Positions 3,297 through 34,663 of a stretch of DNA of 37,204 bases are shown here, piece after piece; the stretch's first letter is position 1; each line of letters opens with the position of its first letter. The notes below the pieces were generated by a model. It saw only the letters and a list, made by a program, of their open reading frames with translations. It ran no database searches and was not told the origin of the DNA. The stretch covers positions 1-37,204 of the IMG/VR virus record IMGVR_UViG_3300025585_000100; one strand, written 5' to 3'. The translations under genes and the position numbers were made by a program. This DNA is from a virus.

Positions 3297-5116
3297 TCGA
3301 TCGAATAAAAGGATTTATCACGCGTGCGCTTTCCCTGTCCGGTGGAAACCTCAAGGACCCGCGCCTTAATGAGCTGTTTGGCTCATCCGGCACTGATTCC
3401 GGTGTGCCAGTCACGCCCGATACGGCGCTGACCTATTCTGCGGTTTATGCTGCGGTTCGCTGCATCGCCGAGTCGGTCTCTTCGCTGCCGCTTAATTATT
3501 ATGAACGCCTTCCCACTGGCGGAAAGGCACCCGCCAAGGCGAACCCATTGCACACGCTTCTACATGATGAACCCAATCCCGAGATGACCTCGTACCAGTG
3601 GCGCGAGGCGTCAATGGCGCACCTTCTTCTCTGGGGCAATGCGTATTCCGAAATCGTGCGAGACCTCGAGGGGAACGTGGTCGAGCTCTGGCCGATCGAT
3701 CCGACGATCGTGACCCCGAGGCGCACCGAATCCGGTGACCTTTACTACGATCTCAACCGTGGCAAGACCTTCATCACCGCCAATAATATGCTGCACATTC
3801 CTGGGCTTTCCTTCGATGGGATCTCGGGCATGAGTCCGATTTCGCTGGCCCGCCAGTCGATCGGGCTTTCGATGGCGATCGAGCAGTTCGGTGCCGGGTA
3901 TTTCGGGCGTGGCGCTCGCCCTGGTGGCGTGTTGACTTTCCCTGGTCAACTCAGTCCCGAGGCCCGCCAGAATCTCCGAAGGTCGTTTGAAGAACTTCAT
4001 GCGGGCGGTGCGAACTCGCACCGGGTCGCTCTGCTGGAGGCTGGGCTCAAGTGGGAAGCGATTGGCGTGCCTCCGGATGATTCGCAGTTTTTACAGTCAC
4101 GGGAATTTCAGATCATCGAGATCGCCCGCTGGTTCAATCTCCCGCCCAATAAATTGAAAGACCTCTCCAAGACGAGTTATAACAGCCTCGAGCAAATGGA
4201 AATCTCCTTCGTGGTGGACACGCTCCGCCCGTGGTTGGTGCGATGGGAGCAGCAACTCAACCGTAAGGTCGTCAGGCCGAGGGATAAGGGAAGCTACTTC
4301 TTTGAGTTCAATGTGGACGGGATGCTTCGAGGCGATCTCGCTTCCCGCTACCAGTCGTATTCGGTCGCTCGTAATTGGGGCTGGCTCAGTGTGAATGAGA
4401 TCAGAGAGAAAGAGAACATGAACCCGATCGAGGGTGGTGACAGTTACCTCCAGCCGCTGAATATGCAAGGGCTGGATACCGCAACGACTTCGGCACCAGC
4501 AACGACGCCGTCTGTTGGAACAACCCCCACCGTAGGCAGTCAGGACGCTTCTGTTGTTGACCCCAATGTGGATGTGGCGGCAACTGCGCTCAATGGCGCT
4601 CAGATTGCTTCCCTCGTCGATCTAGTGGTTCAGGCAAACTCGGGCTTGATCTCAATGTCATCGGCGCAGGCGATTGCCGGGGCGTCTTTCCCATTCCTGT
4701 CTAAACAGGTTAGTGACATGATCTTTTCTGGTGAAGCCCCTCCAAATCCCGCCCCATTGGCAACCACGCCCACCCGCTCCGATGAATCGATTCTCCTGCG
4801 CCTCCTCGACGATGCGGGAGAACGCTTGCAAAATGTGGAGTGCAGCGCCGTCAAGCGCTTCGCCAACAAGCCCAACGAGTTTCTGGCCAAGCTCGATCAC
4901 TTCTGCACCGAGCATCGCTCGAGGGTGGTGGCGGCATACGCCCCGGTGCTCGAGGCGTTTGGGATGAGCGCGGATCTCGATCACCATGTCGGCAGGCACC
5001 TCGATCAGTTCCGGTCGGTCTGGTTGGATTTTTCTGGCACGGTCTCAGCAAAAGATTTTTCCGAAGCGGTCATTGAAAAAATCAAAACCATGAAAGGATC
5101 AAAAGATGAAAACTAA
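3293..5116 (+). CDS. Portal protein, HK97 family, with long C-terminal extension
   Basis: Residues 1 to about 400 match the HK97-type portal plan: 'TYSAVYAAVRCIAESVSSLP' near residue 45, the 'LLLWGNAYSEIVRD' core, and 'LSKTSYNSLEQ' followed by the clip and crown region. The portal is the dodecameric ring at the head vertex through which DNA passes. At 607 residues it is about 200 longer than usual. The extra C-terminus has an Ala/Thr/Pro linker, a helical 'LNGAQIASLVDLVVQANSG' segment seen at the end of other phage portals, and a further helical tail. It overlaps the terL stop by 4 bases and the protease start by 11. Confidence 0.93.
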   Translation: MIDRIKGFITRALSLSGGNLKDPRLNELFGSSGTDSGVPVTPDTALTYSAVYAAVRCIAESVSSLPLNYYERLPTGGKAPAKANPLHTLLHDEPNPEMTSYQWREASMAHLLLWGNAYSEIVRDLEGNVVELWPIDPTIVTPRRTESGDLYYDLNRGKTFITANNMLHIPGLSFDGISGMSPISLARQSIGLSMAIEQFGAGYFGRGARPGGVLTFPGQLSPEARQNLRRSFEELHAGGANSHRVALLEAGLKWEAIGVPPDDSQFLQSREFQIIEIARWFNLPPNKLKDLSKTSYNSLEQMEISFVVDTLRPWLVRWEQQLNRKVVRPRDKGSYFFEFNVDGMLRGDLASRYQSYSVARNWGWLSVNEIREKENMNPIEGGDSYLQPLNMQGLDTATTSAPATTPSVGTTPTVGSQDASVVDPNVDVAATALNGAQIASLVDLVVQANSGLISMSSAQAIAGASFPFLSKQVSDMIFSGEAPPNPAPLATTPTRSDESILLRLLDDAGERLQNVECSAVKRFANKPNEFLAKLDHFCTEHRSRVVAAYAPVLEAFGMSADLDHHVGRHLDQFRSVWLDFSGTVSAKDFSEAVIEKIKTMKGSKDEN

Positions 5117-29797: not shown

Positions 29798-30147
29798 AAA
29801 CCCTTCTCGTTGACGCCCAGATTGCAAACTACAGATCCAAGACCCAGCTCGGGGCAAACTTCCAGGTCTACCTCGAGGACGGGAAATGGTGGATCAAAAC
29901 GACCCCATCGGTCTGGCCTCCGCGGGAACTTTCATTGCTCGAAATGTGGGGTCTGGTGCGAAACCAAAATGATTACCACCTCACCAACACCGGCCTGCTC
30001 ATGAAGAACGATGAGCGCTGGCGCTCAATCATGGCCAAGGCTCAGTTTGATGAGATTGATCGCTGGGATGAGACCGGGGCGATTGCCGCGGAGGTTGATG
30101 AGACGGTTGGGAAATTGATTGAAGAAATTGAAGGTGCCCATCGATGA
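29794..30147 (+). CDS. Unknown early protein
   Basis: A 117-residue protein from the ATG at 29794, overlapping the preceding stop. Sequence 'YRSKTQLGANFQVYLEDGKWWIKTTPSVWPPRELSL' suggests a beta core followed by a helical acidic tail ('IAAEVDETVGKLIEEIEGAHR'). I recognise no family. It sits directly before the primase gene, with a 4-base overlap, and probably belongs to the replication operon. Confidence 0.75.
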   Translation: MKTLLVDAQIANYRSKTQLGANFQVYLEDGKWWIKTTPSVWPPRELSLLEMWGLVRNQNDYHLTNTGLLMKNDERWRSIMAKAQFDEIDRWDETGAIAAEVDETVGKLIEEIEGAHR

Positions 30148-32189
30148 ATGCCAAGGACTCGGCAAAAAAATATCTTGAACTCGGTCTCAGTGTCCTTGCC
30201 ATCTCGCCCGATGGCAGCAAGTCACCGGCAAGGGAGGTCGGTCTTTGGCACTCATTCCAGCATGAGTGCGCAAGCCCATCCCAGGTCGAGCAATGGTGGC
30301 CGGATAACAGCCTCAACGGCGTGGCGATTGTTGGCGGGGCTGTTTCCGGTGATCTCGCTGTCATCGACATCGAGACCGGCGATGCTTACTCCAAGTTCCG
30401 GGATGACTGCCACGGCGAGGGCCTTTTGTTCGCCCTCGATTCATGCCCGATCGTCATCACTCCCAATGGTGGGAGGCACATTTATTGTTTTGGCCAAAAC
30501 CTCAAAAACCGCAAGCTTGCCAAGAACATCGACGGCAAGACCGTGATCGAGATCAAGGCGGAGGGCGGGTATGTCCTGGCCCCGGGCTCGACCGCGGAGT
30601 GCCATCCCACAGGGTTGATCTATCGCTGGGAAAACAATTCCCTCCTGGAACACGAAACACCACCCAAGAAAATAGACCGGGATGAGTTCTCGTTGATGCT
30701 GGCAGTCGCCAAGCTCCAGAATGCCCAGAATGTCGTTGAAAAAACTTTCCCGCAGATCGTGACCACGGTCAATTATGACGGCAGGAAACGCCCAGGAGAT
30801 GACTTTAATGAGCGCGGAGACTGGGAAACCATCCTCACTAACGCTAATTGGCAGATATACAGGCGCCGCGGTGACATGATTTGGTGGCGCAGGCCCGGCA
30901 AGGACACGGAGGGATTCAGTGCAACGACCGGCTATTGTAAGAATGAGCGCAGCGGAGATCTGTTCCATGTGTTTTCATCAAACGCATTTCCTTTTCAAAT
31001 GGACCAGTCTTATTCAAAATTTACGGCATACGCCCTTCTAAATCATGATGGAAATTTTGCCTTGGCAGCAAAGGAACTAGCATTAAACGGCTATGGAGAT
31101 CCCGATCCAGAAATCAAGTTCCTCCACAAACCCAGGGAACCCATCACCCCAAAGATCTGGACGCCCGAGATCGTGGACCAGGCCTCGGGCAGGGAATATA
31201 AATTCGCCCGCGAAATCAAGGCGACCAACCCAAACAAGGAATGGCACTGGCACGGCTACATCTATCCCGGATGCACCACTATGCTATCGGCGCTCTGGAA
31301 AGTCGGTAAGACCAGCCTTATCTCGCAGCTCTTGCGCTCTTGGATGCATGAGGAAACATTCCTCGGGCAAAAGATCAGCAAGGCAAGGGCGCTCTATGTC
31401 AGCGAGGAGGGCGACGCGACCTGGGAGGAAAGGACGCTGAAATATGGACTGAGGGAGAGCGATCATCATGGATGGTTCCTGCGCCCATTCAGCACCCAGC
31501 CGACATTGCAACAGTGGCAGGATTTCATCGGGCTGGCATCCTTCATCATGAACCGTGATGGATTTGATGTCCTGGTCATCGACACACTGTCGAAGATCTG
31601 GCCGGTGAAGGACGAGAACTCAGCGGGTGAAGTCGCGCAGGCGATCAACTCGTTTGACATGGTTACCAAGGCCGGGCGTTCCGTCCTTGCGGTGCATCAC
31701 ATGAGAAAGGGAGGAGGTGAAAACTTCACGGCATCGAGGGGATCTGGCGCGGCTTCCGCGGCGTTTGACATCCTGCTGGAGTACAGTCGTGAGGAGGGAG
31801 GATTTGGTCCGAAGTCAAAAACGAAACGCGTACTAAACAAGACGGGCCGGTGGAACGAACACGGACCCGAGACGATGGTCATCGACTTTGTCAATGACGA
31901 GCTCGTTTCTCTTGGGGATCGGGACGAAGTGGAAAAGGTCATCCGTAGAAAATCAATCTATGAGGTTCTTGATGACTTCCAGTTTTTGTCAGTAGACGAG
32001 ATCCGGGAGCTTTCCGGGCAACGCAAAGACACGGTGATCAAGCAACTCGAGGACCTGGTCGATGGTGGCGAAGTCGAAACCACCGGCACCGGTTCCCGGG
32101 GATCAAAAAAGAAGTTCAGAAGAGTTACGATCAAACAACCTTTACAAAAAGATTTAGGAGAGTTTAATGCCAGTGCTCAAGGTCTCTAG
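30144..32189 (+). CDS. Primase-polymerase fused to RepA/AAA helicase
   Basis: A 681-residue replication protein. Residues 1-200 are a bifunctional primase-polymerase domain: the metal pair D75/E77 in VIDIE, H112 in GGRHIYC and the 'EIKAEGGYVLAPGS' strand. Residues 365-560 are a RecA-like ATPase: P-loop A383-x4-GKT (ALWKVGKT), and Walker B VLVIDT with D480, then 'VHHMRKGGG'. The C-terminus (620-665) is a winged helix, 'FLSVDEIRELSGQRKDTVIKQLEDLV'. It would prime and unwind phage DNA at its origin. It overlaps the next gene by 23 bases. Confidence 0.92.
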   Translation: MNAKDSAKKYLELGLSVLAISPDGSKSPAREVGLWHSFQHECASPSQVEQWWPDNSLNGVAIVGGAVSGDLAVIDIETGDAYSKFRDDCHGEGLLFALDSCPIVITPNGGRHIYCFGQNLKNRKLAKNIDGKTVIEIKAEGGYVLAPGSTAECHPTGLIYRWENNSLLEHETPPKKIDRDEFSLMLAVAKLQNAQNVVEKTFPQIVTTVNYDGRKRPGDDFNERGDWETILTNANWQIYRRRGDMIWWRRPGKDTEGFSATTGYCKNERSGDLFHVFSSNAFPFQMDQSYSKFTAYALLNHDGNFALAAKELALNGYGDPDPEIKFLHKPREPITPKIWTPEIVDQASGREYKFAREIKATNPNKEWHWHGYIYPGCTTMLSALWKVGKTSLISQLLRSWMHEETFLGQKISKARALYVSEEGDATWEERTLKYGLRESDHHGWFLRPFSTQPTLQQWQDFIGLASFIMNRDGFDVLVIDTLSKIWPVKDENSAGEVAQAINSFDMVTKAGRSVLAVHHMRKGGGENFTASRGSGAASAAFDILLEYSREEGGFGPKSKTKRVLNKTGRWNEHGPETMVIDFVNDELVSLGDRDEVEKVIRRKSIYEVLDDFQFLSVDEIRELSGQRKDTVIKQLEDLVDGGEVETTGTGSRGSKKKFRRVTIKQPLQKDLGEFNASAQGL

Positions 32190-32796
32190 TTCAGATTACA
32201 CATCAGTGCCAGTCGGCACCTATCGCGCGAGATTGCTCGGGTATAAGGAAATGCCAGCAAGCTCAAAATTCCCGGATTCCGGCCCATCTTTCGTGTGGGA
32301 GTTCGAGGTACTTGAGGGAGAGTTCTCCGGGAAAACCGTGTCCAGGTGGACACCCACCAACCTCACGATGGGAAACGGTTTTGGAAAGCTGGTCCGCGAA
32401 TTACGCGGAGGACCGATCAAGGCCAACGAAGAGATCGACCCGGATCATTTCATCAACAAGCAATACCAGATCACGGTGGGACCAAACGCCGACGGGCAGA
32501 AAACCAAGGTCATCATGGTTTCACCCATAAGCAACCTGGCACCCCCAGGAGCTCCAACCGCTGCGCCACCCGGAGCTCCTCCAGCTCCAAAAAAACCAAG
32601 TCAACCAGCGCCACCTCCGCCGCCAGCATCCCAGGAGAAAGTATTCTTTTCCCGCGACGGAGTCGAGAAGGCGGAGTTCATGCCATTCGATGAAGCCTAC
32701 AAGCTGGTTGACAAGCCAGGCTATGAAAAGGCGATGGTCTGGGACCCGAAAAAAGGGATGTATGTTCCAGCCCGGGATTACTTGCTGCCGTTCTAA
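32167..32796 (+). CDS. OB-fold-like ssDNA-binding candidate with proline linker
   Basis: A 209-residue protein. The first 110 residues read as a beta-rich fold like DUF669/phage SSB-type proteins: 'VPVGTYRARLLGYKEMPASS', 'FVWEFEVLEGEFSGKTVSRWTP', 'HFINKQYQITVGPN'. A Pro-rich linker (APPGAPTAAPPGAPPAPKKP) joins it to a short C-terminal domain. Position between PrimPol and the recombination-type genes supports a DNA-binding role. It starts 23 bases inside the PrimPol gene. Confidence 0.7.
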   Translation: MPVLKVSSSDYTSVPVGTYRARLLGYKEMPASSKFPDSGPSFVWEFEVLEGEFSGKTVSRWTPTNLTMGNGFGKLVRELRGGPIKANEEIDPDHFINKQYQITVGPNADGQKTKVIMVSPISNLAPPGAPTAAPPGAPPAPKKPSQPAPPPPPASQEKVFFSRDGVEKAEFMPFDEAYKLVDKPGYEKAMVWDPKKGMYVPARDYLLPF

Positions 32797-32810: not shown

Positions 32811-32833
32811 GCGCCTGGCACTGTGCTGGGCGC
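32811..32833 (+). terminator. Strong hairpin between replication and recombination genes
   Basis: GCGCCTGGCA (32811-32820) pairs fully with TGCTGGGCGC (32824-32833), two pairs being G-U, around a three-base loop. Only scattered T follows (AATTCTTACTTT). It may be a weak terminator or an RNA processing site that sets the level of the next gene. Confidence 0.45.
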
Positions 32834-32864
32834 AATTCTTACTTTGACTGAGGAGATTCGATTA

Positions 32865-33527
32865 ATGACTGTACTATCTAAGAAATTACCCAAGTTTGAA
32901 GTTCCAACAATTGAAACACCAACAAAGCTTATTGCTTTGGATATGAAAACAATTCTAGTTAACCTAGAAGGAATCACCCCTTTTATTTGTCATAACTGGG
33001 ACGAAAAAAACATTAAAAAAATGCAAGAAAAACATGCTGGAACAGCTAGCAAAGGTCGTGAAAAACGAAACCCTATTGCTGAATATGAAGCTGCTTATTA
33101 CCGACTCCCTGACGGTCGCCCTGGCATGAAACTCATCGCCTTTAAAAATGCCGCTGTTACCTCGGTGACAAGCTTGGGCAAGGAGTTTACCAAGGTTGGA
33201 GCTCGTCAGGCATTTTTTATACTGCGTGACAAGGACGGTGGTGAACTGACTCCGATTTATTATCCAGAAGATACACCACCATACATGAGAACAGACACTG
33301 TTCCAGTCGGCATGGGTGGAACTGACTTGCGCTATCGCCCAGAGTTTTTGCGCTGGGGTGTCACGCTTGCCATTGAATTTAACTCCCGGGCGATTTCCCA
33401 GGACCAACTGGTAAATCTTATAAATCTTGGTGGTTTCTCCGTTGGGGTTGGCGAATGGAGACCTGAGAAAAACGGAGATCATGGGCGCTTTAAGGTAGTC
33501 AGCAAATTTTCATGGGAGGGCGCGTGA
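32865..33527 (+). CDS. Conserved recombination-module protein with glycine-rich C-terminal loop
   Basis: A 220-residue protein from the ATG at 32865 (AGGAG at 32851-32855). It belongs to a widespread phage group that I know by sequence but not by a firm name. Features: 'LVNLEGITPFICHNWDEK', the 'AEYEAAYYRLPDGRPGMKLIAFKNAAV' core and the C-terminal 'LINLGGFSVGVGEWRPEKNG' loop followed by GRFKVV. That Gly-rich loop resembles the one at the end of RAMP/Cas7-type RNA-binding folds (a weak inference). The first 450 bases are AT-rich compared with neighbours. It overlaps the next gene by one base. Confidence 0.75.
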   Translation: MTVLSKKLPKFEVPTIETPTKLIALDMKTILVNLEGITPFICHNWDEKNIKKMQEKHAGTASKGREKRNPIAEYEAAYYRLPDGRPGMKLIAFKNAAVTSVTSLGKEFTKVGARQAFFILRDKDGGELTPIYYPEDTPPYMRTDTVPVGMGGTDLRYRPEFLRWGVTLAIEFNSRAISQDQLVNLINLGGFSVGVGEWRPEKNGDHGRFKVVSKFSWEGA

Positions 33528-33997
33528 TGTATCAATACAAGCCAGGTAGATCGATACCAGGGAAAAAAGCGGAGGATGTGGGCAATGAACTTGCCCGCAT
33601 CAACGACAAGCATGGAGAGCTTACACCCGCGCAGATCGTTGAGGAAAGCAAACCAAAAAAGGCACTGCTTCATGATGTCTTTGAGTGGAATGATCAAGTC
33701 GCCGCTGAAGAATATCGCATTCATCAAGCGAGATTGGTCGTTAATTGCGTGACTGTCGTGGATGAAAACCTTCCGGAAACAAAACCGGTTCAGGCTTTTG
33801 TCTCCATCACCGTGATGAATGAGAACGAGGAAAACGAGCGCCGCTACATTCCAGCGAGGGAAGTCACGAGCAACCCAAAACTTCTTGAGCAGCACTTGGA
33901 TCACCTAAAGCGCAGGCTTAAAAACATTCGGATCGAGCACGCAGCTTTCACGGAGCTCGCTGAAGTCTGGCATGCGATTGATACCGCTGTCAAGTAA
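33527..33997 (+). CDS. Conserved phage protein coupled to the Gly-loop protein
   Basis: A 156-residue protein from the ATG at 33527, overlapping the previous TGA. The segments 'HGELTPAQIVEESKPKKALLHDVFEWNDQVAAEEYRIHQAR' are characteristic of a conserved phage family often encoded beside the preceding gene type; its function is not known to me. The C-terminus is helical (LEQHLDHLKRRLKNIRIEH). The pair is the last coding unit before the pentamer array. Confidence 0.78.
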   Translation: MYQYKPGRSIPGKKAEDVGNELARINDKHGELTPAQIVEESKPKKALLHDVFEWNDQVAAEEYRIHQARLVVNCVTVVDENLPETKPVQAFVSITVMNENEENERRYIPAREVTSNPKLLEQHLDHLKRRLKNIRIEHAAFTELAEVWHAIDTAVK

Positions 33998-34000
33998 CAC

Positions 34001-34380
34001 GGAAGGCAAGGCATGGCGCGGTGCGGCGGGGCTAGGCGAGGCGAGGTCTTGCAGGGCAGGCGAGGCGAGGTCTGGTACGGCCGGGCTGGTTGTGGCGGGG
34101 CAGGGCAGGCGTGGCTGGGCGAGGCGCGGCTCGGCAAGTCAGGGCTGGGCAGGCTTGGCAGGGCAGGCGAGGCTCGGTGAGGCGCGGCGCAACGAGGCTT
34201 GGCTCGGCATGGTTTGGCAGGCGAGGTGCGGCGTGTCCTGGAATGGTTTGGCAGGGCAAGACTTGGCAGGCAAGGCGGGTCTAGGTTAGGTCTGGTCAGG
34301 CTCGGAGAGGTTAGGCATGGCAGGCGAGGCAAGTCGGGTCGGGGCTCGAAAAGGCAAGTCCAGTCGAGGCAGGCTAGGCA
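34001..34380 (+). repeat. Non-coding GGCNN pentanucleotide array
   Basis: This 380-base stretch is a degenerate 5-base repeat, about 75 units of GGC plus two variable bases. At the left end GGC/GGT starts at 34005, 34010, 34015, 34020, 34025, 34030, 34035 and 34040. Occasional one-base slips change the phase and the period of 5 resumes. The + strand is very G-rich. The period is not a multiple of three, and open frames through it are low-complexity in all six readings, so it is not coding. It fills the gap between the recombination-type genes and the terminator at 34395. I know of no named element that fits. Confidence 0.9.
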
Positions 34381-34394
34381 AAATAAAAAAGAAC

Positions 34395-34436
34395 CACAGC
34401 GCAGGAAGCGACCAGCTCCCGCGCTGTGTTTTTTTT
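34395..34436 (+). terminator. Strong intrinsic terminator of the early operon
   Basis: CACAGCGC (34395-34402) pairs with GCGCTGTG (34421-34428), with further pairing inside, followed by eight T (34429-34436). It ends the transcript that crosses the pentamer array. A perfect dyad TTTTAAC-AATG-GTTAAAA (34433-34450) overlaps its end. Confidence 0.92.
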
Positions 34437-34465: not shown

Positions 34466-34663
34466 ATGATAAGTCAAAACGGATTCTATTCCGTTCCCAC
34501 TATAGTAAAGGGAATATGGGAACAGAATCTGTTCCTTAGAAGAAAGACTCTAGAAATCGTCTTTAAAATCATCATCGTGGACATAACTCTAATGTACACG
34601 ATGATTTATGTATTCTGTTCCCTAGTTCCTCTTACTATGATGGGAACGGAATCGAAATTATGA
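34466..34663 (+). CDS. Small hydrophobic protein read through the inverted-repeat element
   Basis: A 65-residue reading frame with an ideal ribosome site (AGGAGG at 34452-34457). It overlaps the next gene (ATGA), so it may serve mainly to couple translation. The C-terminal two-thirds is hydrophobic (IVFKIIIVDITLMYTMIYVFCSLVPL). Most of its codons fall in the inverted-repeat element at 34488-34652, so the protein sequence may be a by-product of that structure. Either a leader peptide or a small membrane protein is possible. Confidence 0.45.
   Translation: MISQNGFYSVPTIVKGIWEQNLFLRRKTLEIVFKIIIVDITLMYTMIYVFCSLVPLTMMGTESKL
34488..34652 (+). repeat. 165-bp inverted-repeat element with four copies of an 11-bp motif
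   Basis: The left arm (34488-34528) and right arm (34612-34652) are 41-bp imperfect inverted repeats. Each arm is itself a hairpin of the motif ATTCYGTTCCC and its complement (34488-34498 with 34518-34528; 34612-34622 with 34642-34652). The 19-base loops of the two arms are also complementary to each other. In the centre, AAGAC/GTCTT and ATCATCGTG/CACGATGAT make further stems. The element is AT-rich and lies just after the early terminator. Confidence 0.85.

What the first reader, a model, noticed from the sequence alone, without database searches (positions are those of the whole stretch)
34001..34380. Non-coding GGCNN pentamer array before the early terminator
About 75 units of GGC plus two variable bases run for 380 bases with 5-base periodicity, occasional one-base slips and strong G bias on one strand. 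It lies in the replication/recombination region right after two conserved phage proteins and ends at a strong terminator. It is not coding and not a normal microsatellite, since the GGC core is kept while the other bases vary. That suggests selection on a binding site or nucleic-acid structure: an origin, an R-loop or G-rich fold, an annealing-protein loading site, or a decoy RNA.
Basis: partly seen in the sequence, partly recalled or inferred. Interest (0 to 1): 0.85.

Follow-up and report, generated by a model that had tools for sequence, protein, structure and literature searches.

The report
Phage guide-RNA array of VIPR type
The odd GGCNN stretch is a set of about seven RNA guides belonging to a phage-encoded, CRISPR-ancestor-like system (VIPR, first described in a 2026 preprint) that most likely lets this phage recognise and silence the DNA of rival phages.

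Summary
In detail: 77 GGY+NN units at 34001-34381, array score 251 bits against about 16 at best in shuffled DNA. The array follows two genes, A (32865-33527) and B (33527-33997), and ends at a strong terminator. The trio recurs widely: 76 of 80 A-loci and 74 of 80 B-loci in IMG/VR, plus actinophages, a cyanophage and bacterial genomes. In 228 of 230 loci with A the best array is on the A/B strand, median 9.5 nt away. A is homologous to the solved SUSP1 Vipr protein (E 1e-13) and folds like Csm3/Cas7 RAMPs. The locus is therefore a VIPR system (PMC13142463): the array is a set of guide RNAs whose NN pairs read DNA with a one-base skip. The 'slips' are regular: all eight are the 4-nt unit GGCA, closing blocks of 8-10 units (one of 2); family-wide the mode is 10. 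Guides in two relatives decode to codon positions 1-2 of conserved Vipr peptides, while the owners' own vipr genes carry mismatches. No target of this window's own guides was found. New member of a known kind.

The parts
32865..33527 (+). gene A: vipr, a Cas7-like RAMP (open frame from 32823; ATG at 32865 after GAGGAGA)
   Evidence: phrog_4652; PDB 36pp_D SUSP1 Vipr E 1.2e-13; AlphaFold2 pLDDT 92.9, Foldseek hits Csm3/Cas7 E 1e-6
33527..33997 (+). gene B: vipr-accessory gene (vap), fold unknown; start overlaps the stop of gene A
   Evidence: phrog_15946; next to gene A in most loci; no PDB fold match; not homologous to SUSP1 vap1
34001..34381 (+). guide (vrRNA) array of 77 GGY/NN units
34001..34007 (+). 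5' boundary GGAAGGC, one base off GGCAGGC, which stands at the same place in relatives L006-L009 and L011
34005..34054 (+). guide block 1: AA AT GC GC GG TA GA GA CT AG, closed by GGCA 34055-34058
34059..34103 (+). guide block 2: GA GA CT AC CG TG GT GG AG, closed by GGCA 34104-34107
34108..34147 (+). guide block 3: GT TG GA GC TC AA AG TG, closed by GGCA 34148-34151
34152..34161 (+). short block of two units: TT AG, closed by GGCA 34162-34165
34166..34215 (+). guide block 5: GA TC GA GC GC GA TT TC AT TT, closed by GGCA 34216-34219
34220..34264 (+). guide block 6: GA GC GT CT AT TT AG AA TT, closed by GGCA 34265-34268
34269..34318 (+). guide block 7: AA GG TA TA CT CA TC GA TA AT, closed by GGCA 34319-34322
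34323..34367 (+). guide block 8: GA AA GG GG TC AA AA CA GA, closed by GGCA 34368-34371
34372..34381 (+). last two units after the final GGCA: array end, perhaps 3' handle of the last guide (inferred)
34395..34428 (.). terminator hairpin, flanked by T runs on either strand
   Evidence: z -4.55, no shuffle as stable; consensus scan

Best explanation
The locus is a phage-encoded VIPR system (Viral Interference Programmable Repeat; PMC13142463). Inferred working: the array is transcribed on the + strand, with vipr and the accessory gene or from a promoter of its own, and ends at the hairpin 34395-34428. It yields guide RNAs (vrRNAs) of about 8-10 GGY/NN units. Vipr, a Cas7-like RAMP, polymerises on each guide and holds the GGY triplets. 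The exposed NN pairs base-pair with double-stranded DNA in steps of NN plus one skipped base, so that a coding target is read at codon positions 1-2 with the wobble base ignored. Binding represses the target gene, most likely in competing phages, prophages or satellites. The 4-nt unit GGCA marks guide boundaries in this contiguous type of array. Shown here: array, gene pair, homology to SUSP1 Vipr, RAMP fold (model), punctuation, family-wide linkage. Shown in the preprint for other VIPR systems (mainly SUSP1): guide RNA expression, Vipr binding, skip rule, repression. Inferred for this phage: that it does the same.
For: Array real and non-random. Same gene pair with same-strand adjacent array in 76/80 A loci, 74/80 B loci, 83/120 loci found by the array alone, 10/11 bacterial-genome loci. 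Gene A matches SUSP1 Vipr in PDB, E 1.2e-13, and SUSP1 by tblastn; fold matches are Csm3/Cas7. The scorer picks out four arrays in SUSP1, one upstream and three downstream, as the paper describes. Family guides match loci best with a one-base skip (99 hits against 2-9 at other skips and 7-14 for shuffled guides); L025 and L063 guides read conserved Vipr codons in 57 and 33 loci but not in their own vipr.
Against: No convincing target for any of the window's own guides. The skip-rule excess rests mainly on two guides and their many homologous targets. Accessory protein B is not the vap1 of SUSP1, and no separate structured tail follows each guide as in SUSP1. Nothing here shows transcription.
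Confidence: 0.87

Rival explanations
1. A structural or replication element: an origin, R-loop or G-rich fold, or a loading site for a filament-forming annealing protein with a 5-nt footprint.
For: Lies after the primase/helicase gene; strong G bias; 5-nt period.
Against: The array follows the vipr/vap pair, before, between or behind the two genes, in phages with quite different neighbours. Orientation follows those genes in 228 of 230 loci. The variable bases form blocks with regular GGCA boundaries and block-wise turnover, which an origin or fold does not need. The partner is a RAMP, not a known annealing protein.
Confidence: 0.04
2. The Vipr-array complex is a VIPR relative with another job: the array RNA acts as scaffold, decoy or regulator of the phage's own genes rather than as guides against rivals.
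For: No rival target found for the window's guides; B differs from vap1.
Against: No good match of the window's guides in its own genome either (the best in the set searched have at least 3 mismatches). Arrays of close relatives share few guides while their proteins are about 80% identical, which fits changing enemies better than a fixed internal role. Guides of relatives read rival vipr genes.
Confidence: 0.07
3. A protein-coding repeat, a simple satellite, or an assembly artefact.
For: G-rich frames stay open by chance (ORFs of up to 143 aa overlap the array).
Against: A -1 slip about every 50 nt, and length differences that are not multiples of three (arrays of L009 and L011 differ by six whole blocks, 313 nt). 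15 of 16 NN types are used. Comparable arrays occur in independently sequenced isolate phages.
Confidence: 0.01

Closest known systems
VIPR system of Escherichia phage SUSP1 (PMC13142463; PDB 36pp)
   Same: Homologous Vipr protein with G-loop, an accessory gene beside it, GGY/NN arrays on the same strand beside the genes.
   Different: SUSP1 has four separate vrRNAs, each followed by its own conserved tail; here seven full guides and one short block are packed head to tail with a 4-nt GGCA unit between them. B is not homologous to SUSP1 vap1. Pyrimidine mostly C here (61 of 74), mostly T in SUSP1.
VIPR staggered arrays with overlapping vrRNAs (mentioned in PMC13142463, its fig. S18)
   Same: Probably the same array kind: contiguous, register shifted by one base at each boundary (inferred from the phrase only).
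Class 1 CRISPR-Cas RAMPs (Csm3, Cas7)
   Same: Protein fold; guide blocks between a short constant element that is also found at array ends.
   Different: No CRISPR repeats and no cas genes recognised around it; guide interrupted every two bases by GGY.

Membership tests
VIPR system | RAMP homolog of the Vipr family with G-loop | tested here: met
   PDB 36pp_D E 1.2e-13 with G-loop aligned; tblastn to SUSP1; Foldseek Csm3/Cas7
VIPR system | vap accessory gene next to vipr | tested here: met
   Gene B beside A and conserved; it is not vap1 and which of vap2-6 it is could not be checked
VIPR system | Intergenic tandem GGY/NN repeats, about 9-16 per vrRNA in SUSP1 and P. fulva systems | tested here: met
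   77 units in blocks of 8-10 plus one of 2; family mode 10
VIPR system | Structured invariant 3' tail after the repeats | tested here: inconclusive
   No tail between blocks; the array ends two units after the last GGCA, then a terminator hairpin
VIPR system | DNA recognition by NN with one-base skip | tested here: inconclusive
   Supported for relatives; no target for the window's own guides
VIPR system | vrRNA expressed and bound by Vipr; repression of targets | not testable with these tools
   needs RNA sequencing and reporter assays
VIPR system | Mostly encoded by phages or prophages | tested here: met
   Window has terminase, portal, major head protein, integrase
CRISPR-Cas class 1 | CRISPR repeats with spacers, and cas genes beyond one RAMP | tested here: not met
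   GGY/NN array instead of repeats and spacers; neighbouring genes have no cas family hits

The most novel reading that the evidence does not exclude
In this large branch of VIPR the guides are packed head to tail into one array in which a single 4-nt unit (GGCA; in some lineages GGCC, GGCT, GGCG or CGCA) is the only punctuation. It stands at array ends and between guides and so works as a minimal CRISPR-like repeat: guides are gained and lost as whole blocks between GGCAGGC junctions, and the first units of the next guide serve as the 3' handle of the one before.
Probability: 0.3. Interest if true: 0.72.

Novelty: new member of a known kind. Interest (0 to 1): 0.6.

Why it matters
VIPR is proposed as the ancestor of CRISPR RAMPs and as a very small programmable DNA binder. 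This window adds an unannotated member with a contiguous, punctuated guide array. The comparative set gathered here (222 distinct arrays, blocks with mode 10 units, block-wise turnover, guides that read conserved Vipr motifs while the owner's copy is mismatched) makes guide processing and self-avoidance directly testable. It also says what phrog_4652 (Vipr) and phrog_15946 (its accessory) most likely are in phages where they are annotated as hypothetical proteins.

Tried and rejected
Origin, R-loop, annealing-site and decoy readings: set aside once gene linkage and Vipr homology appeared. Coding and artefact readings: contradicted by -1 slips and whole-block differences between relatives. Rfam: no match on the array. 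Pfam: no family for A or B above the curated cut-off. Fold search for B: nothing. Targets of the window's guides: exact scans of IMG/VR with the first 8 units of blocks 1, 5, 6 and 7 gave scattered, chance-like hits, none full length; block 6 hits one conserved gene family repeatedly, but with the skip at codon position 1, so it was not accepted. One mycobacteriophage guide: 8 chance-like hits. Contigs of close relatives, with mismatches: not clearly better than shuffled guides.

Full report
What is there. The window is a temperate tailed phage (terminase, portal, major head protein and integrase by PHROGs). After the primase/helicase gene (30144-32189) and a gene without family hits (32167-32796) come gene A (32865-33527), gene B (33527-33997) and then the reported array. 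The array is real: 77 units, first G kept in 75, second in 66, third base C or T in 74, 15 of 16 NN dinucleotides used; period-5 autocorrelation 0.58 against 0.32 +/- 0.02; 251 bits in a local GGYNN model against at most 16.5 in shuffled windows. It ends at 34381, and a terminator hairpin follows at 34395-34428.

The slips are regular. All eight 4-nt units are GGCA, spaced 49, 44, 14, 54, 49, 54 and 49 nt. Across the loci fetched, GGCA is by far the commonest slip (1021 of 1424 4-nt slips in 222 distinct arrays), and the number of full units between two GGCA units has mode 10, mostly 7-14 (before removal of duplicates). Of 144 arrays with at least four 4-nt slips, GGCA dominates in 121. Many arrays begin directly with GGCAGGC, and several, among them the close relatives of the window, end about one unit after the last GGCA. 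Segments shared between different arrays start exactly at GGCA in 13 of 134 cases and end exactly after GGCAGGC in 13 of 126; L009 and L011 differ by six whole blocks. So blocks between GGCA units behave as units of gain and loss.

The neighbours identify it. blastn found similar arrays in Mycobacterium phages (Cheoctovirus), Gordonia phages and cyanophage Cy-LDV1. In those translated the same gene pair is there, in varying order: array-A-B, A-array-B, and A-B-array here. Profile scans of IMG/VR gave 371 relatives of A and 135 of B; of the best 80 each, 76 and 74 have an array of at least 35 bits. Of the four A loci without one, three stop at the edge of the held contig just after B, and the fourth has a 30-bit array. 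A scan for the array pattern alone gave 120 loci, 83 with A. In 230 loci with A, the best array is on the strand of the nearest A or B gene in 228, at a median distance of 9.5 nt. In bacterial genomes 10 of 11 A loci have an array.

A is Vipr. The profile of 75 A proteins matches one PDB sequence well, 36pp_D 'SUSP1 Vipr protein', E 1.2e-13, G-loop included; tblastn from the window's protein reaches SUSP1 and many Felixounavirus-like phages. AlphaFold2 gives pLDDT 92.9, and the fold matches are Csm3 and type VII Cas7 chains, E about 1e-6. The preprint PMC13142463 describes VIPR: a phage RAMP, an accessory gene, and vrRNAs of alternating GGY/NN whose NN dinucleotides pair with DNA with one skipped base; it reports repression of competing elements and mentions staggered arrays with overlapping vrRNAs. 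As a control, my scorer picks out four arrays in SUSP1, one upstream and three downstream of the genes, as the paper says. B is not homologous to SUSP1 vap1 and has no known fold.

Does the code hold in this branch? With all guides against the fetched loci, skip 1 gave 99 hits from 17 guides; skips 0, 2, 3 and 4 gave 2-9 hits from 2-6 guides; guides with shuffled units gave 7-14 hits from 7-12 guides. The excess is mainly two guides. One in L025 reads GT GG GT GG GA TG CG CC, codon positions 1-2 of VGVGEWRP, the G-loop of Vipr itself, and matches vipr genes of 57 loci. One in L063 reads the EDMVRVGM stretch, 33 loci. The owners' own vipr genes have 3 mismatches in 16 bases to these guides. A guide of L140 reads the LGH motif of tyrosine recombinases and matches mycobacteriophage integrases at 25 of 28 bases; that this motif is canonical is my own knowledge. 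Against vipr and vap genes only, exact 8-unit sense in-frame matches come from 3 guides against a mean of 0.25 for shuffled ones. [quoted passage not shown]

Targets of the window's own guides were not found. Four exact 8-unit scans of IMG/VR gave 8-25 hits each, near what chance gives by my estimate, none full length. Contigs of close relatives gave matches not clearly better than shuffled guides. The function of this particular array therefore rests on homology and architecture.

Judgement. That the locus belongs to VIPR is close to certain (about 0.95); that it works as stated, against rival elements, is likely (0.87 for the whole statement). Novelty is limited because the system was published in April 2026. 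The exact type, and whether the GGCA punctuation has been described, could not be checked because the supplement was out of reach.

Noticed in passing
L025:6288-6424; L063:6054-6166: First guides of these arrays read conserved Vipr codons (VGVGEWRP; EDMVRVGM) of other VIPR systems, while the owners' own vipr genes carry three mismatches each (13 of 16).
   Followed up: yes
L140:3923-4111; L001:382-426: A 15-unit guide reads the LGH motif of tyrosine recombinases and matches integrases of Mycobacterium phages Philus and Donkeykong at 25 of 28 bases.
   Followed up: partly
L083:5303-7867; L357:4620-4987; L175:1990-2353; L200:5698-6056: Some arrays use another 4-nt punctuation unit: GGCC, GGCT, GGCG or CGCA in place of GGCA.
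   Followed up: partly
L127, L129, L130: Loci with genes B and A in reversed order, about 600 nt apart, and no recognisable array.
   Followed up: no
L241:3091-3437 and 3928-4310; L225:10563-10898: Strong arrays without a recognisable vipr gene in the stretch held: perhaps orphan guides or a more distant Vipr.
   Followed up: partly
window 34484-34656: A long inverted repeat (45-nt arms, 82% complementary, 83 nt apart) with TTCTGTTCCC-like repeats lies just after the terminator, over a small ORF (34466-34663).
   Followed up: no
window 32823-33527: The window's own vipr matches the anti-vipr guide of L025 at 15 of 16 bases; the mismatch is in its AGA arginine codon.
   Followed up: no
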